From Alphaproteobacteria bacterium (GTDB taxonomy: Bacteria > Pseudomonadota > Alphaproteobacteria > Caulobacterales > Hyphomonadaceae): a stretch of DNA of 64,000 nt. The translations under genes and the position numbers were made by a program. The stretch covers positions 124,001 to 188,000 of the forward strand of contig JAAEZZ010000003.1 in assembly GCA_018222605.1 (NCBI GenBank), written 5' to 3'. Of the stretch, positions 26,636 through 42,121 are shown in pieces (positions within the stretch are counted from its first letter, which is position 1; each line of letters starts with the position of its first letter). Below the pieces are notes generated by a model that made no database searches, was not told where the DNA came from, and saw nothing but the letters and a program-made list of their open reading frames with translations.

Positions 26636-26638
26636 GCC

Positions 26639-27714: not shown

Positions 27715-27717
27715 ACC

Positions 27718-28335: not shown

Positions 28336-28712
28336 AGGAACCGGCCTCCCCCCGCCACAATCCGCGCCAGCAACGCACTCATCGCGCCCTGGCTCTCGCG
28401 CCCGGCAGGCTCCTCCGTCCCCGGCGCATAGTTCATGTTCAGCGTCACCGCCTGCCCCGCGCTATGGTTCAGCCCAGCCATCGCCGTCACGCTCTCTGCG
28501 GCCACGCGCGCAAGGTCCCGTAAAATGCTTTCGGCCATGCGCTCAAAGTTCAGCTCGCCAGAGCGCGCAGCCTGTCCCAGCGCTGTCTCGATGCTCTGCC
28601 CGGCACGTCCGAACGCCGCCTCCAGCGCTTCGGCCGCCTGCATACCAGGCCCCTCCGCCAAGGCCTGCAGCGCATCCCCTGCCGAGGCGAGATTGTTGTC
28701 GAAGTCTATCAT
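28332..28712 (-). CDS. GTA gp11-like tail tape measure protein, short
   Basis: By position this is the tape measure gene, between the tail assembly chaperone gp10.1 and the distal tail protein. The 126 residues are Ala-rich and helical (MQAAEALEAAFGRAGQSIET, RMAESILRDLARVAAE), with a short Gly-rich C-terminus, which fits a tape measure. It is clearly shorter than the RcGTA protein, which is over 200 residues, so either the tail is short or part of the gene is missing. No frameshifted remainder is visible; a palindromic repeat lies just upstream. Confidence 0.75.
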   Translation of the reverse strand: MIDFDNNLASAGDALQALAEGPGMQAAEALEAAFGRAGQSIETALGQAARSGELNFERMAESILRDLARVAAESVTAMAGLNHSAGQAVTLNMNYAPGTEEPAGRESQGAMSALLARIVAGGGRFL

Positions 28713-28757
28713 CTAATGCTCCTCTCTTCTGCTAAGCCCTGAAAGCCCGCGCCCGTG

Positions 28758-28861
28758 CTTCGACTTTGCTCAGCATGAGCGCTCCTAAAGCAGGACCTCA
28801 TCCTGCTACGCTTCCCGACTCATCGTGCCCCCTTCCAAACTCATCCTGAGCGAAGTCGAAG
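28758..28861. repeat. Inverted repeat element, FDFAQDE type
   Basis: Two 22-base arms, 28758-28779 and 28840-28861, are reverse complements at 20 of 22 positions and are 60 bases apart. The core CTTCGACTT/AAGTCGAAG with CTCAGGATGAG belongs to a short palindromic sequence that I know as a common dispersed repeat in alphaproteobacterial genomes; its translation is often FDFAQDE. Here it lies between gp10.1 and gp11 and supplies the last codons of gp10.1. Confidence 0.7.
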
Positions 28862-29064
28862 GATGAAGCGGCAGGAGTTTCACGCCCGGCTCCATCCGGA
28901 AACGCCTTTATCAAATCCACCATCCGTCCACGCCCCATCACATCACCTCCACGCGCCAGCCAGCGCCACTCCTTCAGAGACAATCTCCAGAACGCCTCCG
29001 GCCCAATCCCGGCAGACAGCGCCGCCCGCATCATCGCCCCCCAGGGCAGCAAGCCATCCCCCAT
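28798..29064 (-). CDS. GTA gp10.1-like tail assembly chaperone, tail read into repeat
   Basis: The 88-residue product has the small TIGR02216 / Phage_TAC_6 core (PWGAMMRAALSAGIGPEAFW, then LSLKEWRWL), which assists tail assembly. The rest of the frame (ASSFDFAQDEFGRGHDESGS) is the translation of a palindromic repeat, so the native C-terminus has been replaced or extended. The start ATG 29064 overlaps the gp10 stop (TGATG); a GTG lies one codon earlier. Confidence 0.8.
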   Translation of the reverse strand: MGDGLLPWGAMMRAALSAGIGPEAFWRLSLKEWRWLARGGDVMGRGRMVDLIKAFPDGAGRETPAASSFDFAQDEFGRGHDESGSVAG

Positions 29065-29357
29065 CACCCTGCCAGCCCCAGCCGGAACGCATCCGCCACG
29101 GCGCGCGCCGCCGCGCCCGGATGCACATCGCTCTCGCGCAGCGCATCTGCCATCTCGGCCTCGCCGCCCCCGCGCAGCAACGCCGCCAGCACCACCACAA
29201 GGTCTGCCGCAGACAGCGCCCGCATCCGCGCCTCCAGCTCACTCATCCGCACACAGCCGAAAGCCGCCTCAATCTCTGCCAGTGCGCCCAGCGTCAGGCA
29301 CAGCCGCCGCGCCCGACCGCCAATCACCAGCCCTGTCTCTCCCCGCGACGCATTCAT
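29064..29357 (-). CDS. GTA gp10-like tail protein
   Basis: This 97-residue protein matches GTA gp10: GRARRLCLTLGALAEIEAAF is the family core, followed by a helical region with ARMRALSAADLVVVLAALLR. In RcGTA it works with gp10.1 in tail assembly. The start at 29357 lies just after the gp9 stop (TAGGATG). It is followed by gp10.1 with overlapping stop and start. Confidence 0.88.
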   Translation of the reverse strand: MNASRGETGLVIGGRARRLCLTLGALAEIEAAFGCVRMSELEARMRALSAADLVVVLAALLRGGGEAEMADALRESDVHPGAAARAVADAFRLGLAG

Positions 29358-29358
29358 C

Positions 29359-29769
29359 CTACAGCGCTCCAAAGCTCAGGCGGCCGGCGCTTTCCAGCGT
29401 GACGGAGAATTCCGCCTCGCCATCATGCTCGCCGCTCCAGCTCAGTTCGGTGATCTGGAACGCGCCTTCCAATATGCCGAAATCCGGCAGGATCAGCTGC
29501 CAGCCCGGTGCTTCGCCTGCAAAGAAGACGGCCCGCATCCGCGCATCGCTGGCGGCATCCTTGAACACGCCGCGCCCGGTCACGCGGGCGGATTTCACGC
29601 CCGCACCGGCCACCAGTTCACGCCAGGCCTCTGCGCTGTCAGCGCTCGTCCCGTCGACACTTCCGGCCGACAGCTGAATGCGGCTCGCCCGCACGCCGGC
29701 CAGTGTCGTAAAGTCACCCGCCCCGTCTGAAATCTTCAGCAGAATGTCCCTGCCCCTCTGGCCAGCCAT
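29359..29769 (-). CDS. GTA gp9-like major tail tube protein
   Basis: This 136-residue protein matches TIGR02126, the GTA major tail protein: GRDILLKISDGAGDFTTLAG at the N-terminus, DGTSADSAEAWRELVAGAG, FKDAASDARMRAVFF and the final strands EAEFSVTLESAGRLSF. It stacks into the tail tube. ATG 29769 overlaps the gp8 stop; a GTG sits one codon before. Confidence 0.93.
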   Translation of the reverse strand: MAGQRGRDILLKISDGAGDFTTLAGVRASRIQLSAGSVDGTSADSAEAWRELVAGAGVKSARVTGRGVFKDAASDARMRAVFFAGEAPGWQLILPDFGILEGAFQITELSWSGEHDGEAEFSVTLESAGRLSFGAL

Positions 29770-30179
29770 CACGCCGCCTCCTCTGAAATAATCCTGATCC
29801 GGATCAGCCCCCGGAACGCGCGCTTGTCTGCCGTGCGCATCACATCGCCATAGACGACATGCGCCAGCACGATATGCACGCCCGGCACGCTCCAGCTTGC
29901 GCCCTCCACCGCGCGGCGCAGCGCGGCCACCGCCGCCTTCGCGCCGCGCACGCCGCCCTCACGGGTATAGACCGCCAGCGAGATCCGGTGCGCCGCACCC
30001 TTCACCAGCGCCGCATCTTCCGGCGTCACCTCGTGCCGCTCCAGCAGGGCGTGCGGAAACATCGGCGCCTCACTTTCGGCATCGAACACGCGCGCAGGTG
30101 ATCCGAACACGGCCTGCACACCGGCATCCGCGCGCAGCATTTCCATCAGCGCCGCTTGCACCGCTTCTTCCGCACTCAT
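29769..30179 (-). CDS. GTA gp8-like tail terminator (DUF3168)
   Basis: This 136-residue protein is of the DUF3168 family (EEAVQAALMEMLRADAGVQA, HRISLAVYTREGG, AHVVYGDVMR). In RcGTA this product closes the top of the tail tube where it joins the head. Its start overlaps the stop of the gp6-like gene by ATGA, leaving no room for the gp7 stopper gene that normally stands between them. Confidence 0.9.
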   Translation of the reverse strand: MSAEEAVQAALMEMLRADAGVQAVFGSPARVFDAESEAPMFPHALLERHEVTPEDAALVKGAAHRISLAVYTREGGVRGAKAAVAALRRAVEGASWSVPGVHIVLAHVVYGDVMRTADKRAFRGLIRIRIISEEAA

Positions 30180-30721
30180 ATCCGACGCTCCCGGCGCGCG
30201 GCCAGTATGGCGGTCACCTCCTCTGGCAGGGCCTCGCCCGCCTCACGGCCATAGGCCGCCAGCACCAGCCGCTTCAGCGCCTGCACCAGATCCTCCGGCA
30301 CATCCGCCGCTGCGCCATATCCGGTCACGAAGGTCACATCGGCCCGCCCGCCCGGCGGAATGGAGGGCCGCGCCACAAAAGGCTTCAGCCGCAGCCGTCC
30401 GCCTACCAATTGAAACCGCCCCGTGTACAGCTGCGCCGCGCCATCGGCATCTGCCACCTCAACGGAGACCAGCGCCGAGGCCGGCCCCGGCAACAGGCGC
30501 GCGCCAGTGCGGATCAACCCCACCGGCCAGTGGTCAAAGCTGCGCTTTACCGTACGCGTCACCAGGGCCAGCCCCGTCTCCGCCTCCAGCCGCGCCCGCG
30601 CCGCCGCGATCAGCCCCGCCACCAGCGGATCTTCCCCCTCATGCCCGATGCGGAGATACTCTTTCGCCGCCTGCAGAGACAAAGCCTCGTCGGCTGGCGG
30701 TGTGATCACCGTCAGTGTCAT
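30176..30721 (-). CDS. GTA gp6-like head-tail connector (adaptor)
   Basis: This 181-residue protein matches TIGR02215: LTVITPPADEALSLQAAKEY, then AGLIAAARARLEAETGLALV and the C-terminal VPEDLVQALKRLVLAAYG. It is the adaptor ring below the portal. A longer frame starts at 30826, but those extra 35 residues are the translation of a repeat; ATG 30721 has AGAAGGA upstream and begins the conserved domain. The gene is separated from the capsid gene by that repeat. Confidence 0.9.
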   Translation of the reverse strand: MTLTVITPPADEALSLQAAKEYLRIGHEGEDPLVAGLIAAARARLEAETGLALVTRTVKRSFDHWPVGLIRTGARLLPGPASALVSVEVADADGAAQLYTGRFQLVGGRLRLKPFVARPSIPPGGRADVTFVTGYGAAADVPEDLVQALKRLVLAAYGREAGEALPEEVTAILAARRERRI

Positions 30722-30742
30722 AACTATTTCCTTCTCGATATA

Positions 30743-30853
30743 CCTTCCTCCGCCTGAGGGGGAAGTGGGTCGGACGCCAGACGCGGCCGGGCTGAAGGGG
30801 GCCTTCCCCCTCCGCCTTTCAGACACCTCCCCCGCAAGCGGGGGGGAGGAGAC
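30743..30853. repeat. GC-rich palindromic repeat between capsid and gp6
   Basis: About 110 bases between the capsid and connector genes are built from near-palindromic C/G runs, including the hairpin CCTCCCCCGC / GCGGGGGGGAGG at 30826-30849 and CCTCCGCCTGAGGGGGAAG further left. The style is that of the short mobile or REP-like elements scattered in alphaproteobacterial genomes. It could act as a transcript attenuator between head and tail genes. Confidence 0.65.
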
Positions 30854-30859
30854 GCCGCG

Positions 30860-32029
30860 CTAAAACACCATCACTTTCGCCGCGTCGAAATTCTGTACCC
30901 CGCCGCCGACACGCTTCGTCGTGTAGAACAGCACGTAAGGCTTGGCAGAGTATGGATCGCGCAGCACGCGGGCGCCCTGCCGGTCGGCGATCAGATAGAA
31001 GCGCCGGAAATCTCCGAAGGCGATGGCCGCATTGCCCGTGCCAATGTCCGGCATGTCCTCCACTTCCGTCACCGGATAGCCGAGGATCGTCGCTGCTTCT
31101 CCGCCCGTGCCGGGTTGCCACAGATAGCGCCCGTCGCCATCCTTCAGCTTGCGGACAGATGCCACAGTCCGACGGTTCATCACAAAGCGGCCATTCGTGC
31201 GAAAATGCGCCTGTGGCGTGTAGATCAGGTCGATCAGCTGGTCGGCCGCATTCGCCGCGCCGAAATCCCCGGCGACAGAGCCGATTTTGCCCCACACATG
31301 GCTCGTATCGGCCACAATGTCATAGTCCAGAAAACCGCGCGGTTTGCCGCTGCCATCGCCGCTGACAAAGGCCGCCGACTCCTGCGCCGCAAAGGCGGCT
31401 TCCACCTCATCGGCCAGCCAGGCATCAATGTCGGCATAGCTGTCTTCCAGCAGGGTCTGCGTCGCCGCCGGCATGGCGTAGAGTTCCCCCGCCGGGAATT
31501 CCAGCAGGGAGAGACCGGAATGAGCCGTCTCAGTCCGCGTGGCCTGTTCACCCACCCAGCTTGCCGCCGCGCCAAGGCCCACCGGCTTGCGATAGACGCC
31601 GGCAGAGGTCTGCCGCACGGTCGCAATCTGGCGCATCGGGCTCGCCGCCATCAGGCGGGATTCGATCAGCCGGTCCAGTTCCGGTGGCGCAATATAGCCG
31701 CCCTGCTCGTCCGTACCCGTATTCAGCGCCTTCACGTCCAGCCGGGCTAGCCCGCTATCATCACCACTGCGCAGGTAACGCGCCCAGGCGTCACTACGGG
31801 CGTCTTCGTCCGCACTCTTTACACTCCCCGCTTCCGGCCTCGCCATCTTCAGGCTCAGCGCCTCAAGACGGCGGTCGATCCGCGCCAGGCGCTCATCCGT
31901 CAGCGGATCGCTTGCGCCCTTCTGTTCCATCTCGGCCAGACGCGCATCATTGGCCTCTGTATAGGCCGCAAATGCCGCCATCAGCTCGGTCGTATCCGAC
32001 CCGCCCGCCATTTTCGTTTCCTTGGTCAT
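30860..32029 (-). CDS. GTA gp5-like major capsid protein (HK97 fold)
   Basis: This 389-residue protein has the HK97 capsid layout: a charged N-terminal scaffold region (residues about 15-65, EANDARLAEMEQKG...) and then the shell domain (GGYIAPPELDRLIESRLMAA, RTVASVRKLKDGDGRYLWQP). The start at 32029 follows AGGAGAGAGT. The scaffold part is removed by the gp4 protease during head maturation. The protease stop lies 50 bases upstream. Confidence 0.93.
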   Translation of the reverse strand: MTKETKMAGGSDTTELMAAFAAYTEANDARLAEMEQKGASDPLTDERLARIDRRLEALSLKMARPEAGSVKSADEDARSDAWARYLRSGDDSGLARLDVKALNTGTDEQGGYIAPPELDRLIESRLMAASPMRQIATVRQTSAGVYRKPVGLGAAASWVGEQATRTETAHSGLSLLEFPAGELYAMPAATQTLLEDSYADIDAWLADEVEAAFAAQESAAFVSGDGSGKPRGFLDYDIVADTSHVWGKIGSVAGDFGAANAADQLIDLIYTPQAHFRTNGRFVMNRRTVASVRKLKDGDGRYLWQPGTGGEAATILGYPVTEVEDMPDIGTGNAAIAFGDFRRFYLIADRQGARVLRDPYSAKPYVLFYTTKRVGGGVQNFDAAKVMVF

Positions 32030-32079
32030 ACTCTCTCCTGTTAAACTCTCTCTGTCGAAGCACAAGCGCGGGCTCTCCC

Positions 32080-32631
32080 TCACGCCGCTACCGCCCCTCC
32101 CATCAGGGCAAACCGGGCCCGGGCCTGCATCGGGCAGGCCACCAGGGACACTTCCACCAGGTCCACCTCGATCAGTTCCCGCCCATCCGCTCTCAAACGG
32201 TTCCAGATGCGCGGACGAAAGCCGATGGACAGGCCGCTCAGGCCGCTCTCCGCCATGCTGCGCGCCGCCTCACCTTCGATCAGTCCACGCACGTATAGCC
32301 CGCGTCCATCCTCCACCATGCGCACCCAGCGCCCGGCAATCGCGCCCGGCCTGTGCTGCAACAGCATCGGCACAGGTGCCGCCCGCTGCAGGCTCCGCGA
32401 AAACGCCCCAGCCCGCACCACATCTCCGCTCGCATCGGGTATCCCGAAGAGAGAGGCATAGCCTTCGATGAGGAGGTCTCGTCTCGTATCACGCCCCCCA
32501 CCTGTCCTTCCCCTTGCAGGGGGAGGAACTCCAACAGCAGCCGCCTTGCTTGAAGGCTGTCCTCCCCCCTGAAAAGGGGGCGTTAGAGGGGGGTAATGCG
32601 CACGCGTATCTTCGCAGAAAAGCCTACTCAT
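32080..32631 (-). CDS. GTA gp4-like prohead protease with repeat insertion
   Basis: This 183-residue protein has the HK97-type prohead protease domain from about residue 52: LIEGYASLFGIPDASGDVVR, AFSRSL, MLLQHRPGAIAGRW with the catalytic His, and GLSGLSIGFRPR with the catalytic Ser. It cleaves capsid scaffold. Residues about 12-51 are the in-frame translation of a palindromic repeat (see that entry), so the N-terminus has been extended by about 39 residues. The start ATG overlaps the stop of the preceding small gene. Confidence 0.88.
   Translation of the reverse strand: MSRLFCEDTRAHYPPLTPPFQGGGQPSSKAAAVGVPPPARGRTGGGRDTRRDLLIEGYASLFGIPDASGDVVRAGAFSRSLQRAAPVPMLLQHRPGAIAGRWVRMVEDGRGLYVRGLIEGEAARSMAESGLSGLSIGFRPRIWNRLRADGRELIEVDLVEVSLVACPMQARARFALMGGAVAA
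32488..32598. repeat. Palindromic repeat inside the protease gene
   Basis: This stretch of about 110 bases holds CCCCCCTCTAACGCCCCCTTTT and TCAGGGGGGAGG on the minus strand and mirrored C/G runs at its left end (CCTTCCCCTTGCAGGGGGAGGA). It resembles the dispersed palindromic elements common near gene ends, but here it lies within the protease reading frame and stays open through it. Confidence 0.7.
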
Positions 32632-32854
32632 CCCCGGCCTCCATCTTCCGTTCTATCCGGTCCAGCTGGCCTTCCATCCGGTCGACGCCCTCTTCCAGGC
32701 GCGCCAGCCGTTCCACCACAGTGCGCCGTTCCCGGACGGTCTGCTCCAGCTGCGAAATCCGCTCCGCCGCCGCCCCGGCCCAGACCAGCGCGCCGCCGGT
32801 CTGCACCATCACGGCCAGCACAAAGCCTGCTGTCACCTTCTGCTCCATCTTCAT
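32624..32854 (-). CDS. GTA gp3.5-position small membrane coiled-coil protein
   Basis: This 76-residue protein has one membrane segment (about residues 8-27) and a coiled-coil tail with heptad-like spacing (RISQLEQTVRERRTVVERLA, LEEGVDRMEGQLDRIERKME). It occupies the place of RcGTA gp3.5 between portal and protease. The start at 32854 overlaps the portal stop as ATGA, and its stop overlaps the protease start. I cannot assign a function; membrane anchoring during head assembly is a guess. Confidence 0.75.
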   Translation of the reverse strand: MKMEQKVTAGFVLAVMVQTGGALVWAGAAAERISQLEQTVRERRTVVERLARLEEGVDRMEGQLDRIERKMEAGDE

Positions 32855-34017
32855 GATTGCAGCCCCGCCAGACGCCGCTTCTCCTCTGCGGTCGCAAAGC
32901 TCGCGCCTTCCAGCCGCGCCCACAGCGCATCGCGCTCGGCCGACAGCGCCGGCACGCGGTCAACATCCGCGCGGATCTCCACATCCTGCCCGAATGGCAC
33001 ATCCAGCCAGGCCGACAGCGCGCCCGCGAATTTCTGCACCAGCGGCAAAATCGTCATCCGCCAGAAGGCGAGGTTCGCCTCCTTATAGTTCGAATACGTA
33101 TTATCCCCTGGAATCCCCAGCAGCATGGGCGGCACGCCCAGCGCCAGCGCAATCTCCCGCGCCGCACCATGCCGGGCTTCCAGAAAGTCCATCTCCGCAG
33201 GCGACAGAGACATCGGCCGCCACTCCAGCCCGCCTTCCAGCAGCAGGGGCCGCCCAGCATTGCTCGCGCCGGAATACATACTCTCCAGCTCCGCCTTAAG
33301 CGCTTCGAACTGGTCCGGCGGCATCCGCCCATGCCCGCCATAGACCAGCGCGCCGGAGGGCTTGGCCGAATTGTCGATCAGCGCCTTCGCCCAGTCCGCG
33401 CTCGCATTGTGCAAATCCAGCGCCCGCCGCGCCGCGCCCAGCGGGGCCAGGCCCAGCGTGTCATTCAGCGGATTGAACAGTTTCAGGTGCAGTACCGGGC
33501 TCCAGCCCGTCTCTGCATCGCGGCGGATCACCCGCTCGCCATGGCGTTCCTTCACGGCCCAGGCCTCCACCCAGCCGCGCGCATCCTTCAGCGGCCGCAT
33601 GGCGGACGGGGCCAGCGCATACAGCGCAGACACCCCCGCCCCGTCCACCACACTGGCCGCCCCACTGGCCGCCCCCCTCACAGCCTCCAGGCAGACGCCT
33701 TCCAGAAAGGCATTGCCGGTCAGCTGAAGCTGGGAATAGACCGCCTCAAACAGCTCCGCCGCCACGCCGTCCGGCTGCGGTCTGCGGATCAACCGCGCGG
33801 CCCCGTCATGCGCCGTCACCAGCGGAACGGACGCCGCCGCCTCGGCCACCATGCGCACCGCGCGATAGGCCACGGCATTCTGCAGATACCCGTCCCGCGT
33901 CAGCGCCGCGCCATCGCGGGCACCCCAGCGGGCCGTCCCGATTTCTGATAGCGCGACCAGAGGCACCGCCGCTTTTGCCTCGCGCTGGGGCAACCGGAAA
34001 GGCCAGATGGGTTTCAT
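32851..34017 (-). CDS. GTA gp3-like portal protein (HK97 family)
   Basis: This 388-residue protein has the HK97 portal pattern: VAYRAVRMVAEAAASVPLV, FEAVYSQLQLTGNAFLE, FNPLNDTLGLAPLGAARRAL, and NTYSNYKEANLAFW before the C-terminal crown. It forms the ring through which DNA enters and leaves the head. In RcGTA it directly follows terL; here a plus-strand ParA module and a VOC gene intervene, so this gene now starts its own minus-strand transcript from the 217-base divergent region at 34018-34234. Confidence 0.93.
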   Translation of the reverse strand: MKPIWPFRLPQREAKAAVPLVALSEIGTARWGARDGAALTRDGYLQNAVAYRAVRMVAEAAASVPLVTAHDGAARLIRRPQPDGVAAELFEAVYSQLQLTGNAFLEGVCLEAVRGAASGAASVVDGAGVSALYALAPSAMRPLKDARGWVEAWAVKERHGERVIRRDAETGWSPVLHLKLFNPLNDTLGLAPLGAARRALDLHNASADWAKALIDNSAKPSGALVYGGHGRMPPDQFEALKAELESMYSGASNAGRPLLLEGGLEWRPMSLSPAEMDFLEARHGAAREIALALGVPPMLLGIPGDNTYSNYKEANLAFWRMTILPLVQKFAGALSAWLDVPFGQDVEIRADVDRVPALSAERDALWARLEGASFATAEEKRRLAGLQS

Positions 34018-34234
34018 GAAGGGCTCCGCTCTGTTTCGTTTGATGAGCAGAAATTAAATCCCTGACATCCCCATCGGATTCAGTTTGGAAAATCCTTCCA
34101 AAAACAGCGGCCTACCGCTAAAACATTAGGGAAACCGCCGGATTTTTCCCTGTATTTTATTCCCGTGCAGGCATAGCCAGACCGGCGCAAATCTGCTTTT
34201 TCGCCGAACTATCAGGCGCCAGGGAGCTAACAGA

Positions 34235-35119
34235 ATGTCAGCACGTGTGATTTCCATTGCCAACTCCAAGGGCGGGGTCGGCAAAACCACCACTTGTGTC
34301 AGCCTTGCCGAGGCATTTGCCGCAAATGGCTTCCGCACACTGGTCGTGGATCTGGACACACAGGCCAACGCCTCGCTGCTGGTTTTCGGCCATGAGGGCG
34401 ACGAGCATCTGTTCCGCGCGATCAATGAATACGTCACCATCTCTGACTGGCTGCTGGAGAATTTCTTCGCCGGTGAACACAAGCGCCTCTCAGACTTCAT
34501 CGTCACCGACGCGTCCGATGTCTCCTACAATGGCAAGCCGCTGGAGCTGGACCTGATCCCTTCCTCGCCGCGCCTGCGCAAGACAGAGCGCGAGCTGATC
34601 TATGAGCTGACCGCCAAGGGCTACTCCATGGAGGCCCTGCAGGGCCAGGTTGGCCGCCGCATGCGCGATGACTTTGAAAAGCTGAAAGCCGATTATGACG
34701 TCATCATCTGCGACTGCCCGCCCGGCATTTCCGTGATGACCGAAACCGTTCTGGCCGCCAGCCACCTCATCATCGTGCCCACCATTCCGGACTTCATGTC
34801 CACGCTTGGCCTTGACCTCTTCACGGGCGACATCATGCGCAATCTGCGCGGGCGGGACATTGACAGCCTCCCCTGCGTGCTGGCGACTCGCTATGATGGC
34901 ACACCGCACCAGCAAGTGGTCCTCAATGCCATGCGCGAGGCGGCGAACGCCAAGGAAACCGAATTCACCATGTTCAAGACCGTCGTGCCGATGAAACAGG
35001 GCTTTGCCACAAACCCGATCGAGCTCGGCCCGGAACCGACCCTGAAGGCAAAATGGCCGGGCGAAGCGCTCGGCGTTGTGGAAAGCCTTCTCAAGGAAGT
35101 GCGGGAGAAAATTCAATGA
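34235..35119 (+). CDS. ParA-family ATPase
   Basis: This 294-residue protein has a deviant Walker A (SKGGVGKTTT, residues 11-20), the Walker A-prime DLDTQANAS and Walker B region DVIICDCPPGIS. It belongs to the ParA/MinD family that positions DNA or protein cargo using ATP-driven patterns. It has no N-terminal DNA-binding extension, so it is not a plasmid-type SopA. The next gene overlaps by ATGA; there is no parB or parS nearby. It lies on the opposite strand between terL and portal of the GTA, with a shared divergent promoter region. Confidence 0.9.
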   Translation: MSARVISIANSKGGVGKTTTCVSLAEAFAANGFRTLVVDLDTQANASLLVFGHEGDEHLFRAINEYVTISDWLLENFFAGEHKRLSDFIVTDASDVSYNGKPLELDLIPSSPRLRKTERELIYELTAKGYSMEALQGQVGRRMRDDFEKLKADYDVIICDCPPGISVMTETVLAASHLIIVPTIPDFMSTLGLDLFTGDIMRNLRGRDIDSLPCVLATRYDGTPHQQVVLNAMREAANAKETEFTMFKTVVPMKQGFATNPIELGPEPTLKAKWPGEALGVVESLLKEVREKIQ

Positions 35120-35589
35120 CCGACGCCCCCAAGGACAGCGCCAACGCGCTCGGCGCCCTGCTCGGCCAGAAAGACCGCTTCGGAAAGCTGGGGGAGAAAG
35201 ACTTTTCCGCCGCCACCGAAATTCTCGTCAAGAAGCTCATGATCTCCGCCGGTCAGACCACGGAAGACATGAAGGCCCTGAAAGAAACAGTCGGGGCGGA
35301 GATTTTCGACAAGGTTCTGAAATCCCTGACCGCCCACCAGGCGCGCCAGCTCGCCCGCCGCATGGACAAGACCGTCCCGGATATCGAAGTCTCCACCGCC
35401 GGCGCCGCCTGCGCCTGGATTCGCGGCCTGATGACCGGCAACATGCCCGCCCCGCTGGAAACCAGGCCGGCAGAAACAGAGGCAGCGGCAGAAGAAACGT
35501 CTACGGAGGAAACTGCCTCCGACGACGACAAACCCACGCCCCCCAAAAACGCCTATTTCGGCCGCAAAGCCTTCCGCACGGGGGGCTAG
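35116..35589 (+). CDS. Protein of unknown function coupled to ParA
   Basis: This 157-residue protein has a helical N-terminal half (FSAATEILVKKLMISAGQ, FDKVLKSLTAHQARQLARRM), one short region with AACAWIRGLMTG, and an acidic, low-complexity tail (about 112-145) ending NAYFGRKAFRTGG. No known family is recognised. Overlap of its start with the parA stop (ATGA) indicates that the two act together, the way ParA ATPases have partner proteins that stimulate them or carry the cargo. Confidence 0.75.
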   Translation: MTDAPKDSANALGALLGQKDRFGKLGEKDFSAATEILVKKLMISAGQTTEDMKALKETVGAEIFDKVLKSLTAHQARQLARRMDKTVPDIEVSTAGAACAWIRGLMTGNMPAPLETRPAETEAAAEETSTEETASDDDKPTPPKNAYFGRKAFRTGG

Positions 35590-35613
35590 GCCCGTGGCGA
35601 GATCAAGGCGCTG

Positions 35614-36009
35614 CTATTGCTTTCGCTGAATCAGGTCCCAGCGATTGCCATACAGGTCTTCGAACACGGCGACGGTGCCATAGTCCGCCTCCACAGGCTC
35701 CCGCACGAAGGTAACGCCCTGCGCCTTCATCGACTCATAGTCCCGCCAGAAATCATCCGTGCCGAGGAACAGGAACACGCGCCCGCCGCACTGATTGCCG
35801 ATTGAGGCTTCCTGTTCCGGTGACGACGCTTTCGCCAGCAGCAATTGCGTGCCGCCACCCCCCGGCGGCGCCACCAGCACCCAGCGCTTGTCCTGTTCCG
35901 GCCGGTAAGTGTCTTCGACCAAGTCAAAGCCCAGCGCGCCGGTATAGAAGGCTATCGCCTCATCATAGTCACGCACGAGAAGAGAAATGTGAAGCAAGGT
36001 CTGTTTCAT
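35614..36009 (-). CDS. VOC-family (glyoxalase-like) protein
   Basis: This 131-residue protein has the beta-alpha-beta-beta-beta fold signatures of the vicinal oxygen chelate family: LLHISLLVRDYDEAIAFYTG with a metal-ligand His, GTQLLLA, and the C-terminal FEDLYGNRWDLIQ. Such proteins are metalloenzymes or resistance proteins; the substrate cannot be told. It lies between the terL gene and the convergent ParA pair and has no GTA role that I know of. The weak start context makes the exact start slightly uncertain. Confidence 0.88.
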   Translation of the reverse strand: MKQTLLHISLLVRDYDEAIAFYTGALGFDLVEDTYRPEQDKRWVLVAPPGGGGTQLLLAKASSPEQEASIGNQCGGRVFLFLGTDDFWRDYESMKAQGVTFVREPVEADYGTVAVFEDLYGNRWDLIQRKQ

Positions 36010-36059
36010 AGTGCTGCTTTAGTGAGATTCGTTCAGGCCGCTGCCCCCAATCGGCCTGG

Positions 36060-36140
36060 ATCCCGGCCTGCGCCGGGATGAGCGCTGCCTGGACTGAGAC
36101 GCCCCTTCCTCTCTTCCGCTGACCCCGACGAAAATCGGGG
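36060..36140. repeat. Pair of palindromes downstream of terL
   Basis: ATCCCGGC-CTGC-GCCGGGAT at 36060-36079 is a perfect 8-bp hairpin, and CCCCGA-CGAAAA-TCGGGG at 36123-36140 is another. Both are short dispersed sequences that I know from many proteobacterial genomes (first: translation HPGAGRDP). They stand between terL and the VOC gene. Either could stop terL transcription. Confidence 0.7.
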
Positions 36141-36181
36141 CCTAGGGCCACACGCTGCGCACCTTCCACCCCCAAAGCCCC

Positions 36182-37480
36182 TCACAACACCCTCACCCAG
36201 GGCCCGGCGCCTTCCAGAACCAGCGCCCATACCGCCCACACCAGCGCATCGACGCGGTCCGGTGAGCCGCGAAACCCTTCCGCGCCAAACCGGCACATCT
36301 GGTCTTCCAGCGTGGGCAGCAGGCCGACATGACTGACCCGTCCCTGTGCGTACAAAGCCGCCACCGGGGCTGCCCGCGCCCGCTTGCCCAGCCGCGCATG
36401 CACCAGCCGCACCGGCACGCCCGCCCCGGCGCTCTCCAGAATCTGCCGCACCATTTCGCCGCCCTGATTGGCCTCCGCGATAATCTCCCGCGCGCCGGTC
36501 TCGCGGCACACCGCCACCGCGCGCCGGGCCCAGTCCAGCGGCTTCAGCCCCGGCGCAGACGCATCCGCCAGCACATAGGCATGACCGCTGCGCACCCCCG
36601 CCGCGATGATGCCGCACGCATCCGCTGCCGGGCCGCTGGTTGCTGGCGGGTCGACCGCGACGATCACATCCTCCATCATGGGTGGGGTGTCCACCCGCCC
36701 CTCATCAATCATCTCCCTACGGAATAATGCGCCTTCGGGATCTTCCATGAATTCGCCGTTCAACTCCTGCCGTGCCAGCTGGCTGTCGCCATAGGCGGCC
36801 TTCATGGCGCGCAGGAAATCCGGCGACAGATTGCCGGCATTCTCCTCCGTCCCGGCGCGCAGCACATGCACGGCCTCATCCTCTCCCGCCGACAGCAGGC
36901 GGCGCATCACCCCCACCGCGCGAGGCGTCGTGGACGCAAAGCAGCGCGGTGCCGCCCCCAGGCGCAGGCCCATCTGCAGCGTGTCCCACACTGTCTCTCC
37001 CTTCGCCCAGGCGGCGATCTCGTCACACCAGGCGACATCGAATTGCGGGCCGCGCAGACTGTCCGGGTCTTCTGCGGAAAAGACATGCGCCTCTGCGCCA
37101 TTGTCAAAGCGCAGGATACGCCGGCTCGCATGATAGACCGGGCGAAGATCCTGCCTGGGCTCGATCCATTTCAGGCCGCTCGGTCCGTCGATCATCACTT
37201 CGCGCACATCGTGCAGGGCCGGGCCCACCAGCGCCGCACGCCTCCGCCCGCCGTGCAGCAAGCTCCAGCGCAGCCATTCCGCCCCGGCCCGGGTCTTGCC
37301 AGCGCCGCGTCCGCCCATGAACAGACATGTCCGCCAGCCCGCCTGCGGCGGAACCTGTGTATCGCGGGCCAGGCGCAACCACGGATTCTCCGCCACCAGT
37401 TCGCCCGTCTTCGGCGGCAGGTCGCTCCAGTCCCGCGTCTCGAAAGCCGTGCGCACCTTGCGGCGGAAGTCCGGGTCCAT
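36182..37480 (-). CDS. GTA gp2-like large terminase
   Basis: This protein (432 residues from 37480) has the terminase ATPase motifs Walker A (FMGGRGAGKTRAGAEWL) and Walker B (FDVAWCDEIAAW), and a C-terminal nuclease region with IVAVDPPATSGPAADACGII and DQMCRFGAEGFRGSPDRVDA. It packages DNA into GTA heads. Upstream in-frame ATGs at 37603 and others exist, but 37480 has AGGAAAGG upstream and gives the usual N-terminus (MDPDFRRKV). The small terminase gene overlaps it extensively (see that entry). Confidence 0.9.
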   Translation of the reverse strand: MDPDFRRKVRTAFETRDWSDLPPKTGELVAENPWLRLARDTQVPPQAGWRTCLFMGGRGAGKTRAGAEWLRWSLLHGGRRRAALVGPALHDVREVMIDGPSGLKWIEPRQDLRPVYHASRRILRFDNGAEAHVFSAEDPDSLRGPQFDVAWCDEIAAWAKGETVWDTLQMGLRLGAAPRCFASTTPRAVGVMRRLLSAGEDEAVHVLRAGTEENAGNLSPDFLRAMKAAYGDSQLARQELNGEFMEDPEGALFRREMIDEGRVDTPPMMEDVIVAVDPPATSGPAADACGIIAAGVRSGHAYVLADASAPGLKPLDWARRAVAVCRETGAREIIAEANQGGEMVRQILESAGAGVPVRLVHARLGKRARAAPVAALYAQGRVSHVGLLPTLEDQMCRFGAEGFRGSPDRVDALVWAVWALVLEGAGPWVRVL

Positions 37481-37934
37481 CAGCTGGTCGCCCTTTCCTC
37501 TCATGGCCGCCCTGCTGGGGCCCCTCATCGGCTCCTTCATCGGAGAGGAAGGCATAGATGTCCTCTTCCTCGTCTGCGACGCAATTAGCGGCCTGCCGTT
37601 CATCCGTAATTCCCCCGACCTTGATTCCTGCCATTTCCAGCTGGCGCACTTCCGTACTGACCCGCACCAGTTGCGTTACTTTCGGCGCAATGTCCTCGCC
37701 CGCCGCTGCGGCGGCCAGCATCTGTTCCGTCGCCAGGTCCTGCGCCTCGTCCATGGACAGCTGCAGGCGCTCCAGCGGCTTTTCCGGCTCGTTCAGCTCA
37801 TGCGTGCGCATCAGGCGGTAGACGCTTGTGCGATGCAGGCCCACCTGCGCCGCGATGCGCGTCACGCTCCAGCCGAGCAGCCAGCAAAGCCGGATCTGGC
37901 GCTTCAGACGATCCCTGTTCGGATGATGTGACAT
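37104..37934 (-). CDS. GTA gp1-like small terminase, reading far into terL
   Basis: The N-terminal half of this frame is a plausible small terminase: a helix-turn-helix (SVTRIAAQVGLHRTSVYRL, about residues 23-41) and a helical oligomerisation region with acidic C-terminus (VADEEEDIYAFLSDEG). The start at 37934 follows GGGAGG. No stop codon follows until 37104, so the last half overlaps terL by about 377 bases in another frame and is Gly/Arg-rich, unlike a real domain. The functional protein probably ends near the terL start; a lost stop or frameshift is likely. Confidence 0.65.
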   Translation of the reverse strand: MSHHPNRDRLKRQIRLCWLLGWSVTRIAAQVGLHRTSVYRLMRTHELNEPEKPLERLQLSMDEAQDLATEQMLAAAAAGEDIAPKVTQLVRVSTEVRQLEMAGIKVGGITDERQAANCVADEEEDIYAFLSDEGADEGPQQGGHERKGRPADGPGLPPQGAHGFRDAGLERPAAEDGRTGGGESVVAPGPRYTGSAAGGLADMSVHGRTRRWQDPGRGGMAALELAARRAEACGAGGPGPARCARSDDRRTERPEMDRAQAGSSPGLSCEPAYPAL

Positions 37935-38126
37935 GCGTCCCTCCCGTTTGATGAGGGCAATGTGCCGCCTGCACGTCCCCATCGGATTCGCGCGTCAACT
38001 GACTTCAAGAATTCCGTATGATTCCCTCGCATGGCCGCCCATCCGGGCACAGATGTGTTGCAGGAAAAGCACGAATTTCTCCCCGCATGACGGGCACTTG
38101 CCCCAAAACCCTAATGAAACCGAGCG

Positions 38127-38166
38127 GCGTCACAAAAACATTACGCATCTGTCATTCAGGCGTAAC
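38127..38166 (+). promoter_or_regulatory. Tandem Pho-box-like half-sites
   Basis: Four 7-base half-sites are spaced 11 bases apart with 4-base linkers: GCGTCAC (38127), ACATTAC (38138), CTGTCAT (38149) and GCGTAAC (38160). CTGTCAT is the exact half-site of the PhoB consensus and the 7+4 period is that of Pho boxes. The array ends 46 bases before the TonB receptor start. With a phytase gene downstream, phosphate-starvation control by PhoB is likely. Confidence 0.65.
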
Positions 38167-38212
38167 GGAGCCGTGGGAACGGGCCGCCATCCAGAGAGAA
38201 GGACTTCCTCCC

Positions 38213-40999
38213 ATGACTTCAACCACCCGCAAGCTATTGCTCCTGGGTGCCGCCACGGCCACCCTGGTCCAGGCTGCTTCCGCCGACATCCTCAAAGGCG
38301 TTGTCACCGACGCGACCGGCGAAGCACCGCTGCAGGGCGCCATCGTGACGATTGAGGAACTCGGCCGCAGCGCCTCCTCAGACCGTTTCGGCGCATACCG
38401 CTTCACCAGCATTCCGGCTGGCGACTATACGCTGTCCATCTCCTATGTCGGTGCAGACACGGTCACGGACACGGTGAACGTCTCCGGCGACTCCACCTAT
38501 GATATCGTGCTCGGCGGCGATGTGCGCTATCTCGACAACGTCCTGGTCGTCGGCTCTGCCGCTGCCCAGGCCGGTGCCATCAACCAGCAGCGCGCCTCCG
38601 ATGCCATCATCAACGTGATCGACTCCGACGGCCTCGGCAACTTCCCCGACACGACCGTTGCTGACAGCCTTTCCCGCGTGCCGGGCCTGTCCATCGAGAA
38701 CGACCAGGGCGAAGGCCGCTACGTCTCCATCCGCGGGATCAACACAGATCTGATCTCCGCCACCATCAACGGCGTGCGCACCCCCTCTCCGGAAGACCGC
38801 CGCGGCGTTCTGCTGGATGGTGTGCCGTCTGACCTTCTCGACGGCATCGAGGTTCAGAAATCCCTGACCCCGAATGTCGACGCCGACACCATCGGTGGTG
38901 TGATCAATCTGAAAACCATCTCCGCCTTTGACCGCGATGGCCAGTTCATCCGCGCCAAGGTCGAGGGCTCCTACAATGAAATCACCGAAGAGATTTCCCC
39001 GAAAGCCACGCTGACCTATTCCAACGTGTTCGGCGAGAAACTGGGTGTGGCCGCCTCCGTCAACTATCAGGATCTGCGCATTCAGGCCCACAATAACGAA
39101 ACCGGTGGCTGGGACGAAGACGACTTGGTTCCTAATGACGATTACGAAATGCGCTGGTATGACTTGACCCGCGAGCGCGTCGGTCTTGTCTTCAATGTGG
39201 ACTACAAGGCCACAGAGAATACAGAGCTTTACCTCCGTACCCTGTACAACCGCTACAAGGATGACGAAGTTCGCAACAAGTTCGAATTCCGCAAGCTGGA
39301 CGAAGAGGCCGTCACCCTCACAGACAAGGGCTTCAGCTTTGATTTTGCCCAGGCCGATGCCGAAGTGCGCCAGCGGGAAGAAGTCCGCAACATCCAGACC
39401 TATGCTCTCGGCGGCAAGACCTATGCCGGCAACTGGACATTCGATTATGAAGTCTCCTATGCCTATGCCGAAGAAGACGATTCCAACAATCACGACGTCA
39501 CGTTCCGCTCTGACAAGTTCAAAGGCGATGGCGTTCTGCTCTGGGACAATTCAGACCCGAAAAAACCAAAGCTCTCCGGCACCGGTTTTGACTTCCTGCT
39601 CGACCCGGCCAACTACACGATGGACGCTTTCGAACAGGAATACACCACGAATGAAGACACCGAATGGTCCTACAAGCTGGACCTGACCAACGACACCGTT
39701 CTGGGCGACACGCCCGTCACATGGAAAATGGGTGTGAAGGTACGCGACCGCGAAAAAGTGCGGGACGTGAACCTGAAAATCTACGAGCGTGATGATGTTC
39801 TGCTGACAGACTATATCACCGCAAACTCGCAAATCTCCGGCTGGCGCATGGCCAATCCGATGTTCCAGTGGCCCTCTGCCGATCTGACGAACGCCCTGCG
39901 TGGCACCTTCACGCCGGATGAGCTGGACGAAGACGGCTCCAATTTCGACAGCCTGGCCGAAGACTATACGATCGACGAGTTGATCATCGCCGGCTATGGC
40001 ATGGGCACCTTCCAGATGCAGAATTTGACCGTCGTGGCAGGCGCGCGTATCGAGGCCACCGATGTCTCCGCCAAGGGCAATATCTTCTTTGAGGAAGACG
40101 ATCCGGCAAATGTTGGTACACGTCAGTTTGATGATGAATATGCCCACTTCCTGCCTAGCCTGAACCTGAAATATGCCTTTGCGGACAACCTCATCGGCCG
40201 CGCAGCGTATTATGCCTCCATCGTGCGCCCCGCCTTTGGCGAAATGCGCCCGACCATCGCCCTGAACAGCGACCGTGACGAGGCAGAGCTCGGCAATCCG
40301 GAGCTGAATCCGTACGAAGCGAACAATTTCGATCTTTCCATTGAATACTATCCGACGAAATTGTCCGTGCTGTCAGCCGGCCTGTTCTACAAGGACATCT
40401 CCAACCCGATCTTCCAGGCGACCTATGAGAAGGGCCAGTTCCCTGACTCTGTTGACCTGTCCTTCCTGGATCCCGCAACGGTGGCCGGGCTGGATGAGAT
40501 CAAGACCTACATCAATGGCGAAAGCGCCACGGTGAAGGGTATCGAGTTCAACTATGTCCAGCAGCTGGATTTCCTCGGCGACGCCTGGGAGGGCCTGCTG
40601 GTCTCCGGAAACCTCACCCTGGCTGACTCCGAAACCTCCGTCCAGGATGAGAAAGACCTCGCCAAGACCCGCGACGTCCCGATGCTGAAGCAGAATGACC
40701 GCGTCTGGAACGTCGCCATCGGCTACGACAAGGGCCCGTGGGACATCCGTGTCTCTGCCAACTACCGCTCTGCCTATCTGGACGAGCTGTTCGGTGCAGG
40801 CATCGACCGTTACACAGACGACCATATGAGCGTCGAAGCGTCTGCGAAATATGACGTGAACGACCATCTGCAGGTCTATGTCGAAGGCAAGAACCTGACG
40901 GACGAGCCGGAATACTACTATCACGGCTCCAAGAACCGTCTGTCCCAGTATGACGAGTTCGGCGCCCGCTACGTTTTCGGTGTCCGCTACACCTACTAG
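38213..40999 (+). CDS. TonB-dependent outer-membrane receptor
   Basis: This 928-residue receptor has a signal peptide (residues 1-24, QAASA-D), a carboxypeptidase-regulatory-like beta domain (about 25-105, LKGVVTDATGEAPLQGAIVT), a plug (SLSRVPGLSIENDQGEGRYV and SIRGINTD) and a beta-barrel ending in an aromatic residue pattern (FGVRYTY). The plug motif is that of the Xanthomonas/Caulobacter receptor class. It should import a large or scarce substrate, here probably phytate or its breakdown products, because a phytase gene follows 90 bases later. ATG 38213 is chosen over 38018 because only it gives a signal peptide and follows GAAGGA. Confidence 0.92.
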   Translation: MTSTTRKLLLLGAATATLVQAASADILKGVVTDATGEAPLQGAIVTIEELGRSASSDRFGAYRFTSIPAGDYTLSISYVGADTVTDTVNVSGDSTYDIVLGGDVRYLDNVLVVGSAAAQAGAINQQRASDAIINVIDSDGLGNFPDTTVADSLSRVPGLSIENDQGEGRYVSIRGINTDLISATINGVRTPSPEDRRGVLLDGVPSDLLDGIEVQKSLTPNVDADTIGGVINLKTISAFDRDGQFIRAKVEGSYNEITEEISPKATLTYSNVFGEKLGVAASVNYQDLRIQAHNNETGGWDEDDLVPNDDYEMRWYDLTRERVGLVFNVDYKATENTELYLRTLYNRYKDDEVRNKFEFRKLDEEAVTLTDKGFSFDFAQADAEVRQREEVRNIQTYALGGKTYAGNWTFDYEVSYAYAEEDDSNNHDVTFRSDKFKGDGVLLWDNSDPKKPKLSGTGFDFLLDPANYTMDAFEQEYTTNEDTEWSYKLDLTNDTVLGDTPVTWKMGVKVRDREKVRDVNLKIYERDDVLLTDYITANSQISGWRMANPMFQWPSADLTNALRGTFTPDELDEDGSNFDSLAEDYTIDELIIAGYGMGTFQMQNLTVVAGARIEATDVSAKGNIFFEEDDPANVGTRQFDDEYAHFLPSLNLKYAFADNLIGRAAYYASIVRPAFGEMRPTIALNSDRDEAELGNPELNPYEANNFDLSIEYYPTKLSVLSAGLFYKDISNPIFQATYEKGQFPDSVDLSFLDPATVAGLDEIKTYINGESATVKGIEFNYVQQLDFLGDAWEGLLVSGNLTLADSETSVQDEKDLAKTRDVPMLKQNDRVWNVAIGYDKGPWDIRVSANYRSAYLDELFGAGIDRYTDDHMSVEASAKYDVNDHLQVYVEGKNLTDEPEYYYHGSKNRLSQYDEFGARYVFGVRYTY

Positions 41000-41024
41000 T
41001 CTACTCGGATAGAGCTTGATCTCT

Positions 41025-41062
41025 GAGGCCGGGCAGGACACACCTTGCCCGGCCTCTTCCTT
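41025..41062 (+). terminator. Hairpin between receptor and phytase genes
   Basis: GAGGCCGGGCA at 41025-41035 pairs perfectly with TGCCCGGCCTC at 41046-41056, followed by TTCCTTTTCC. The strong stem with a T-rich tail is terminator-like, so part of the receptor transcript may stop before the phytase, or the hairpin may protect mRNA ends. Confidence 0.65.
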
Positions 41063-41089
41063 TTCCCCTCCTCAAGGAGCTGAAGACCC

Positions 41090-42121
41090 ATGAAACGCCA
41101 TTTTCCCCTTGCCGCCCTTCTGGTGGCTGCATGTGCCACAGAGCCGGCCCAGGACATCTACGAAGTCGAGACGGCAAACGTCTATGCCGCCTTCGAAACA
41201 GACCCGATGCCAACCAAAGGCGACACCGCCGATGATCCGGCCCTGTGGGTAAACCCGGATGACGCCTCCAAAAGCCTGATCCTCGGCACCAACAAGGATG
41301 AAGGTCTCTATGTCTACGATCTGACCGGCAAGAAGACCCAGTTCATCGACACCGGCCGTATCAACAATGTGGATGTGCGCGGCAATGTCGCCATTGCCTC
41401 CAATGACGAGACGAACTCTATCAGCTGGTTCTCCATCGACCCGGCGACGCAGACCGTGACGCATATCGGCGATACACCGACGCTGAAGGATGAGCCCTAT
41501 GGCATTTGCGCCGGTCTGATCGACGACAATTTCCTGGCGATCCCGACCTACAAGGACGGCACGATTCAGGTCTGGTCCGTCCCCTATGACGAGGCCGCTG
41601 GCCTGAATGCGGAGCTTGTCCGCACCCACAAATTCGACAGCCAGCTGGAAGGCTGCGTTGTGGAAGATGATGGCCGCCAGGTATTTGTCGGCGAGGAAGA
41701 GTACGGCATCTGGAAGCTGGATCTCGTCAATGATGAGAGCACACCCATATCCGTTGATTCGATTGCGGCCCGTCAGGGCCTTGTCGCCGATGTCGAAGGC
41801 ATCAGCATCTGGAAGGGTGAAGAAGGCTATGGCTATCTCGTTGCCTCCGCCCAGGCAGCCAACCGCTATGTCATTTACGATCTTGAGCCCCCGCACGCCC
41901 GCGTCGGCGTGATCAGCATCGTCGAAAGCCCGGATGGCAGCGTGGACGGCGTGACCCATACCGATGGCCTTGACATCAACTCCACGCCCCTGCCCGGCTT
42001 CCCGAAAGGCGTAATGATTGTTCAGGACGATGCCAATCCGAAATCGGAAATCAACCAGAACTACAAGATTATCGACTGGGCCCGGATCGAGGCCGCCACC
42101 CGCCTGAATGACCGTCCGTAA
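41090..42121 (+). CDS. Beta-propeller phytase, lipoprotein
   Basis: This 343-residue protein has a lipobox (VAAC, Cys15) and the six-bladed phytase fold signatures: DDPALWVNPDD, GRINNVDVRG, DEPYGICAGL, SQLEGCVVEDD and VEGISIW. Such calcium-dependent 3-phytases release phosphate from phytate. It should sit on a membrane surface facing the periplasm or outside, next to the preceding TonB receptor. Pho-box-like sites upstream of the receptor suggest joint induction in phosphate starvation. Confidence 0.92.
   Translation: MKRHFPLAALLVAACATEPAQDIYEVETANVYAAFETDPMPTKGDTADDPALWVNPDDASKSLILGTNKDEGLYVYDLTGKKTQFIDTGRINNVDVRGNVAIASNDETNSISWFSIDPATQTVTHIGDTPTLKDEPYGICAGLIDDNFLAIPTYKDGTIQVWSVPYDEAAGLNAELVRTHKFDSQLEGCVVEDDGRQVFVGEEEYGIWKLDLVNDESTPISVDSIAARQGLVADVEGISIWKGEEGYGYLVASAQAANRYVIYDLEPPHARVGVISIVESPDGSVDGVTHTDGLDINSTPLPGFPKGVMIVQDDANPKSEINQNYKIIDWARIEAATRLNDRP

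What the first reader, a model, noticed from the sequence alone, without database searches (positions are those of the whole stretch)
34018..36181. GTA cluster split by a ParA gene pair and a VOC gene
Seen: the terS and terL genes end at 36182 and the portal begins at 34017, and between them lie a plus-strand ParA gene with a coupled 157-residue partner and a minus-strand VOC gene. In RcGTA terL and portal are adjacent. Inference: either an insertion has divided the cluster into packaging and structure units with separate promoters, or the ParA pair belongs to the GTA and positions DNA or heads for packaging. The unknown partner (35116-35589) with acidic tail makes this a candidate for an undescribed system.
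Basis: partly seen in the sequence, partly recalled or inferred. Interest (0 to 1): 0.75.

Follow-up and report, generated by a model that had tools for sequence, protein, structure and literature searches.

The report
Host ParA pair outliving phage-like cluster
In the budding marine bacterium Hyphomonas, two genes that look like a cell-interior positioning machine sit inside a gene-transfer-agent cluster, yet they stay intact in relatives that have lost that cluster, so they most likely serve the cell itself.

Summary
In detail: a plus-strand ParA gene (34235-35119), a 4-nt-overlapping partner gene (35116-35589) and a minus-strand VOC gene (35614-36009) lie between minus-strand portal and terL genes of an RcGTA-type cluster. 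The window is from Hyphomonas, very close to H. pacifica. The pair is in 41 of 42 genomes of the genus, 10 of 29 of a neighbouring genus and 2 of 3 of another. It is not a GTA part: it is present in 20 of 20 genomes of the genus with a GTA major capsid match and in 21 of 22 without one, across at least 8 changes of GTA state, with similar ParA dN/dS with and without the GTA. Conversely, 39 of 49 other family genomes with a portal match lack it. The VOC gene is a local passenger. The partner is undescribed: a helical domain, a variable acidic linker and a near-invariant basic C-terminal peptide, Y[FLI]GR[KR][AS]FR. Most likely this is a host ParA/MinD-type positioning system whose partner activates ParA through that peptide; the cargo is unknown. 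Related pairs without GTA genes nearby occur in another family of the order. The GTA-packaging reading is not supported.

The parts
34235..35119 (+). ParA/MinD-type ATPase, 294 aa: deviant Walker A (KGGVGKTT, signature Lys12, Lys17), Asp41, DCPPG Walker B
   Evidence: Pfam AAA_31 9.5e-34; residues invariant in the 15 aligned sequences; 294 aa in 36 of 36 ORFs of the genus checked, of 41 genomes with a match
35116..35589 (+). Partner protein, 157 aa, ATGA overlap with parA
   Evidence: no Pfam/PHROG/NCBIfam/PADLOC match
35116..35436 (+). Folded helical domain of the partner (residues 1-107)
   Evidence: AlphaFold2 model md6552555d1b4, block means of pLDDT 87-94 over residues 11-110, 8 helices; no PDB fold match at E<=0.001
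35437..35544 (+). Acidic, Pro/Ala-rich disordered linker, very variable in length among relatives (10 D/E, 2 K/R here)
   Evidence: pLDDT <50 at residues 115-142; counts
35554..35583 (+). Near-invariant basic C-terminal peptide YFGRKAFRTG
   Evidence: motif Y[FLI]GR[KR][AS]FR in 44 of 45 partner sequences; proposed, not shown, to be the ParA-activating peptide
34018..34234 (.). Divergent intergenic region between portal and parA; AAATCTG at 34189-34195, 46 nt before the parA ATG
   Evidence: CAAATCTG within 100 nt upstream of parA in 32 of 36 sequences of the genus (one miss, G059, has only 27 nt of upstream), 16 of 18 portal-less ones, 0 of 9 of the other genera; no chance control made; no sigma-70-like match
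35614..36009 (-). VOC/glyoxalase gene, passenger at the terL-partner junction
   Evidence: Glyoxalase 4.7e-23; among the loci then held, found only in the window genome and in G044/H. pacifica (not a whole-genome search)
32851..34017 (-). GTA portal, start of the structural unit (portal to megatron, 23006-34017)
36182..37603 (-). GTA large terminase ORF (true start probably internal)
   Evidence: Terminase_6N/6C; most matches outside the genus align only from residue about 49-78 (exceptions G033 from 26 and G034 from 17)

Best explanation
The ParA gene and its partner are a host-owned ParA/MinD-type spatial organiser that sits at the terL-portal junction of the GTA cluster and has been kept while the surrounding GTA decayed several times. 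Inferred mechanism: ATP-bound ParA dimers bind a matrix, most likely the nucleoid. The partner carries or is the cargo through its folded helical domain, and reaches ParA through its flexible acidic linker. Its basic C-terminal peptide (YFGRKAFRTG) docks on the ParA dimer, stimulates hydrolysis and releases ParA, so that the cargo is moved or kept in place. The cargo is not identified; it is not only the GTA, since the pair persists without it. Shown here: genes, conservation, GTA independence, purifying selection, architecture. Inferred: matrix binding, activation by the C-terminal peptide, positioning of a cargo.
For: Partner in 41 of 42 genomes of the genus and ParA in the same 41. Major capsid match in 20 of 42: pair in 20 of 20 with it and 21 of 22 without. 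The one miss, G049, has its terL match running off a contig end. 18 genomes of the genus have no portal or only a piece of it; all 18 keep a 294-aa ParA. On the parA tree the GTA state changes 9 times by capsid label (8 forced by well-supported branches) and 11 times by portal label (9 forced). Median dN/dS of ParA 0.058 in GTA-less pairs (n=35) and 0.052 in GTA-bearing pairs (n=23); over a wider range of divergence 0.144 (151 pairs) and 0.177 (118 pairs). In another family of the order, two genomes of one genus carry a 40% identical ParA followed by a partner found by the profile of the Hyphomonas partner (E=1.4e-5 and 0.0014 among 959 six-frame segments, both overlapping the end of parA), with no GTA gene matched in these 7-8 kb loci. 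Deviant Walker A, Asp41 and Walker B residues are invariant in 15 sequences. Published activators of ParA/MinD ATPases act through a short basic peptide, usually at or near the N-terminus (PMC13170346, PMC12204374, PMC10241942: passages seen).
Against: No expression, localisation or biochemical data. Known activating peptides are nearly all N-terminal (PomY, with a C-terminal activating region, is an exception named in PMC13170346), whereas this one would be C-terminal. The partner's folded domain evolves faster in GTA-less lineages (0.268 against 0.123), although the neighbouring DnaJ gene does so too (0.099 against 0.034), so I read it as lineage rate and not relaxation; 15 hand-picked pairs without that control had suggested relaxation of ParA as well. 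One GTA-less genome (G063) has lost the C-terminal peptide in frame. A dual role in GTA-bearing species cannot be excluded. Compared genome pairs are not independent. Only 2 of 7 loci with the 37-42% ParA kind showed a profile-detectable partner, and pairwise BLAST of one of these with a g3 partner is not significant.
Confidence: 0.7

Rival explanations
1. The pair is an accessory GTA module that positions DNA, terminase or heads for packaging.
For: It lies at the terL-portal junction in Hyphomonas and in pair-bearing members of two other genera; the 20 genomes of the genus with a capsid match all have it.
Against: Present in 21 of 22 genomes of the genus without a capsid match under similar selection on ParA; absent from 39 of 49 other family genomes with a portal match; opposite strand; related pairs in loci without GTA genes.
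Confidence: 0.08
2. A DNA-partition (ParABS) cassette left by a plasmid or other mobile element, kept as a relic or addiction-like module.
For: The only phage-family match is a ParA-like partition protein; a second copy in one genome lies beside an integrase, a Toprim-domain gene, DUF3987, a phage small terminase and a SIR2-like gene; distant ParAs with small partners were read on two Hyphomicrobiales plasmids.
Against: Partner has no ParB or HTH match; ParA groups away from the ParA/Soj-like protein of the own genome in a weakly supported tree (84/94); kept at one locus across a genus with no visible element there.
Confidence: 0.12
3. Passenger without function, kept by chance or hitch-hiking.
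For: The junction also collects unrelated inserts such as VOC.
Against: ParA dN/dS about 0.05, constant length, 44 of 45 C-terminal motifs kept while flanking GTA genes are deleted.
Confidence: 0.03

Closest known systems
ParA/MinD (A/D) ATPase positioning systems with dedicated partners (McdAB, PomXYZ, ParC/PpfA type)
   Same: ParA-type ATPase with its motifs, small adjacent partner with a flexible basic peptide, no ParB
   Different: No sequence match of the partner to any searched family library; its basic peptide is at the C-terminus after an acidic linker; cargo unknown
ParABS chromosome/plasmid partition
   Same: ParA family and gene order ATPase-partner
   Different: Partner has no ParB/HTH match; ParA falls outside the own genome's ParA/Soj-like protein in a weakly supported tree
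ParA pairs with a 119-171 aa partner ending in a basic tail (e.g. RAERDAKLFEY) in Caulobacterales genomes and on two Hyphomicrobiales plasmids
   Same: ATPase-partner coupling, linker in some, conserved basic tail; ParA 32-37% identical within the family
   Different: Profile comparison of the partners is not significant (hhalign probability 2.2 and 5.1%)
RcGTA-type gene transfer agent
   Same: The cluster in which the pair lies is one (megatron, capsid, portal, terL)
   Different: The pair persists without the cluster and the cluster exists without the pair

Membership tests
ParA/MinD ATPase family | Deviant Walker A with signature lysine, Walker A' Asp, Walker B | tested here: met
   K12, K17, D41, DCPPG invariant in 15 sequences; AAA_31 and CbiA above cutoff. 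Which residues define the family is recalled.
ParA/MinD positioning system | Cognate partner gene next to the ATPase gene | tested here: met
   ATGA overlap in the loci read of the genus and of g9; 3-5 nt between stop and start in the g3 loci
ParA/MinD positioning system | Partner activates through a basic N-terminal peptide | tested here: not met
   First 20 residues of the window's protein have 2 Lys and 3 Asp; the conserved basic peptide is C-terminal
ParA/MinD positioning system | Matrix binding, ATPase stimulation, cargo | not testable with these tools
   needs protein and cell work
ParABS | ParB/CTPase or HTH DNA-binding partner | tested here: not met
   No match of the partner to any family at E<=0.01
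ParABS | parS-like sites | not tested
   no motif known for this partner
GTA component | Present and lost together with the GTA | tested here: not met
   21 of 22 capsid-less genomes of the genus keep it; 39 of 49 portal-bearing others lack it
GTA component | Co-expressed with GTA genes | not testable with these tools
   opposite strand only; no expression data
McdAB | Carboxysome genes nearby | not tested
   no carboxysome search was made

The most novel reading that the evidence does not exclude
A new branch of ParA-type positioning systems, near-universal in the budding genus Hyphomonas, whose partner activates the ATPase through a C-terminal peptide on an acidic tether and places an unknown cargo in mother cell, stalk or bud; it sits in GTA ruins and sets one of the limits to which GTA deletions can reach.
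Probability: 0.35. Interest if true: 0.7.

Novelty: new variant of a known kind. Interest (0 to 1): 0.5.

Why it matters
Partner proteins are what assigns a cargo to a ParA ATPase, and many such ATPases are called orphans because the partner was not found (passage of PMC10241942). Here is a conserved ATPase-partner pair with no function that my searches found described, in a genus used to study budding and chromosome segregation. It also warns that a gene inside a GTA cluster, even at a fixed junction, need not be a GTA gene: repeated GTA decay in sister species serves as a natural test.

Tried and rejected
GTA co-function: rejected by co-occurrence. Mutual exclusion with the other ParA pair of the family: first suspected because genera g4, g5, g8 and g10 have that pair and g1, g3 and g9 the GTA-junction one; not used as evidence, since the two ParAs are only 32-37% alike and phylogeny alone may explain it. 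Homology of the partner to the partner of that other pair: hhalign not significant. The PDB fold search of the partner gave 121 matches at E<=10 and none at E<=0.001; its profile found two PDB sequences at E about 0.08, taken as chance. An inverted repeat AGGGAAA...TTTCCCT before parA looked like an operator in the window but by eye is intact only in G000 and G044. A phage origin: the IMG/VR matches (18 loci for the partner, 27 for ParA) have ParA 59-61% or 80-100% identical to ours; I take them as GTA regions of this family called viral and did not inspect each contig. Plasmid and phage records gave only matches below 60% identity (the plasmid search stopped at its 5000-record limit). PADLOC: ParA had weak matches to P-loop models (PDC-M28B 8.7e-8, mad8 0.0066), taken as general P-loop likeness. 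In a class-wide sample the partner profile matched 2 of 385 genomes, both of the genus, and the ParA profile at E<=1e-40 likewise 2 of 385. A weak hit of the partner profile in G000 contig 7 (2.5e-4) lies in a 60-residue frame and was dropped. Literature: 'gene transfer agent'+ParA 13 papers, +Hyphomonas 5, +Hyphomonadaceae 2, 'gene transfer agents'+Hyphomonas+loss 0 (listings with starts of abstracts only); no title or abstract start there described this pair. PMC7200025 and PMC6650430 were searched for terms only.

First tree of ParA homologues held wrongly read own-genome ORFs (wrong strand) and was rebuilt (leaving out two own-genome rows and the phage row). In one search the portal label counted G038 as intact although one search finds no capsid gene there, and G024 as intact although its portal match is truncated and only the end of its megatron was found; one search repeats the count with capsid labels in 34 rows of the genus (G059 and the G066 row left out; G045, G052, G056, G058 and G068 were not in the tree).

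Full report
OBSERVATION. The cluster is an RcGTA-type GTA: megatron 23006-26635, HK97-type capsid, prohead protease, portal, terL. ParA and partner overlap by 4 nt and face against the GTA genes. The genus (handle g1) is Hyphomonas by the titles of matching contigs, though some of its MAGs carry other titles. The nearest relative G044 has the same contig number and length as H. pacifica T16B2 contig 67, and its ParA and portal are 100% identical to the window's in the tables.

DISTRIBUTION. In 105 genomes of the family (all that the search held) the partner is found in 53: 41 of 42 in the own genus, 10 of 29 in genus g3 (titles Henriciella, Hyphomonadaceae and one Hyphomonas sp.) and 2 of 3 in g9. 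ParA at 59% identity or more is in the same 53. Among 32 fetched loci with the pair, 24 show GTA genes or remnants beside it. Of the other 8, 7 still have the same DnaJ gene (22083-22961 in the window) on the ParA side. The last is a second copy in G019 beside an integrase, a Toprim-domain gene, DUF3987, a phage small terminase and a SIR2-like gene, with no GTA gene matched.

GTA INDEPENDENCE. The portal match is full or nearly so in 20 of the 41 pair-bearing genomes of the genus, missing, truncated or a stub in 18, and unclear near contig ends in 3 (G052, G059, G068). The capsid gene is matched in 20 of 42 genomes (in G052 only its last 84 residues) and the megatron in 28 of 42, in 8 of these only its 3' part. 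The pair is in 20 of 20 capsid-positive and 21 of 22 capsid-negative genomes. The exception, G049, has a terL match that stops at a contig end, so the pair may be unassembled. In G059 too the capsid may be lost only to assembly, since its terL and megatron are present. Usual remnants, where found, are roughly the first 40-110 portal codons next to parA and the last 50-140 megatron codons next to DnaJ, as if deletions stop at both flanking genes. On the parA gene tree the GTA state changes 9 times by capsid label (8 forced by starred branches, 34 rows) and 11 times by portal label (9 forced, 42 labelled rows). The count cannot tell loss from gain; loss is the plain reading. Outside the genus, 39 of 49 genomes with a portal match have no pair.

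SELECTION. For genome pairs with parA dS between 0.1 and 0.6, median dN/dS of ParA is 0.058 without GTA (35 pairs) and 0.052 with GTA (23 pairs); partner folded domain 0.268 and 0.123; the DnaJ control 0.099 and 0.034. So ParA is about equally constrained, and the faster partner is matched by a faster DnaJ in the same lineages. With dS up to 1.5 the ParA medians are 0.144 (151 pairs) and 0.177 (118 pairs). The pairs share branches, many of the GTA-bearing ones come from one clade, and they are no independent sample. A look at 15 hand-picked pairs showed ParA and partner both less constrained in GTA-less pairs; the larger set with the control does not bear this out for ParA.

THE PARTNER. An AlphaFold2 model from 25 sequences gives a helical domain (residues 4-107) with high confidence and a disordered rest. 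The linker is acidic and varies strongly in length (whole protein 140-210 aa, and 222 in G063, whose end is out of frame). The C-terminal peptide is kept in 44 of 45 partner sequences. Y147, G149, R150, K151, F153, R154 and G156 are invariant in the 25-row alignment; among all 45, position 151 is Arg in 4. One orthologue had Pfam hits below the curated cutoff (DIMCO_N 4.8e-4), which I regard as chance.

RELATIVES OUTSIDE THE GTA. A search of 200 genomes of the order found ParA at E<=1e-25 in 54. In another family (f174) two kinds occur. One is a ParA of about 290 aa; in 8 of 12 loci read it has an ATGA-coupled 151-171 aa partner ending RRAERDEKMFDY or similar. This resembles the pair found in 18 loci of genera g4, g5, g8 and g10 of the own family, which in the two loci whose surroundings I read (L076, L077) lies next to a pyridine-nucleotide-disulphide oxidoreductase, by eye glutathione reductase. 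The other kind, in 7 loci, has ParA 37-42% identical to ours. In two of its loci (G553, G597, one genus) a partner overlapping the end of parA is found by the profile of our partner (E 0.0014 and 1.4e-5 of 959 six-frame segments, the two best), followed by a Roadblock/LC7-like gene (above Pfam's cutoff in one, below it in the other). These partners also end in a basic tail (RRIRP). In the other five (L221, L222, L229, L230, L236) the profile found no partner. None of the 27 + 12 loci of these kinds and of the own-family pair that were tested, nor the G019 copy, matched any of 15 GTA queries from the window at E<=1e-4 (0 of 39 stretches, two of them from G019). Pairwise BLAST of one such partner with a g3 partner is not significant, so the link rests on the profile and on the gene position.

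MECHANISM. [quoted passage not shown] PomY is an exception with a C-terminal activating region (passages of PMC13170346, PMC12204374 and PMC10241942). In the present partner the only conserved basic peptide in a disordered tail is C-terminal. I therefore propose a positioning system with reversed layout. This is inference; no cargo is known. Papers on H. neptunium CtrA and chromosome segregation were searched for terms only (PMC7200025, PMC6650430); no passage seen mentions this pair.

THE VOC GENE AND THE JUNCTION. Among the loci held at the time, the VOC gene occurs only in the window's genome and in G044/H. pacifica. G044 has further ORFs between terL and VOC (by eye a transposase and an acetyltransferase), G048 another ORF and G046 12.8 kb of other ORFs. 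The junction collects inserts; the VOC gene is one of them.

VERDICT. What remains of interest is a host ParA pair with an undescribed partner.

Noticed in passing
L066 3902-12603 (G019 contig 5): A second copy of the pair lies beside an integrase, Toprim-domain gene, DUF3987, phage small terminase and SIR2-like gene: it may travel as cargo of a satellite-like element.
   Followed up: partly
L004 1183-2481 (own genome, contig 8, outside the window): A 432-aa protein fuses an N-terminal TIR domain (TIR_2 4e-8) to a ParA-type ATPase (AAA_31 1.5e-25).
   Followed up: no
L142 5188-6518 (own genome, contig 9, outside the window): Another ParA gene (317-aa ORF) with a 119-aa partner of the RAERDAKLFEY superfamily type (profile E 4e-6), followed by an ORF that looks like uvrB by eye.
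   Followed up: partly
L220 4819-5697 and L235 2335-3216: In another family of the order the related ParA pair is followed by a Roadblock/LC7-like gene, a domain of polarity regulators (recalled).
   Followed up: partly
36182-37982: The terL ORF start (37603) overlaps the terS-like ORF 37104-37982 by 500 nt in another frame; most matches outside the genus align to terL only from residue about 49-78, so its real start is probably internal.
   Followed up: no
38018-42121: A TonB-dependent receptor and a phytase gene lie side by side next to the GTA; they look like a phytate-use pair.
   Followed up: no
L061 2629-15431: In G046 the terS-terL unit is separated from the pair and portal by 12.8 kb while terL and portal matches stay long; in G056 and G058 terL lies on another contig.
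   Followed up: no
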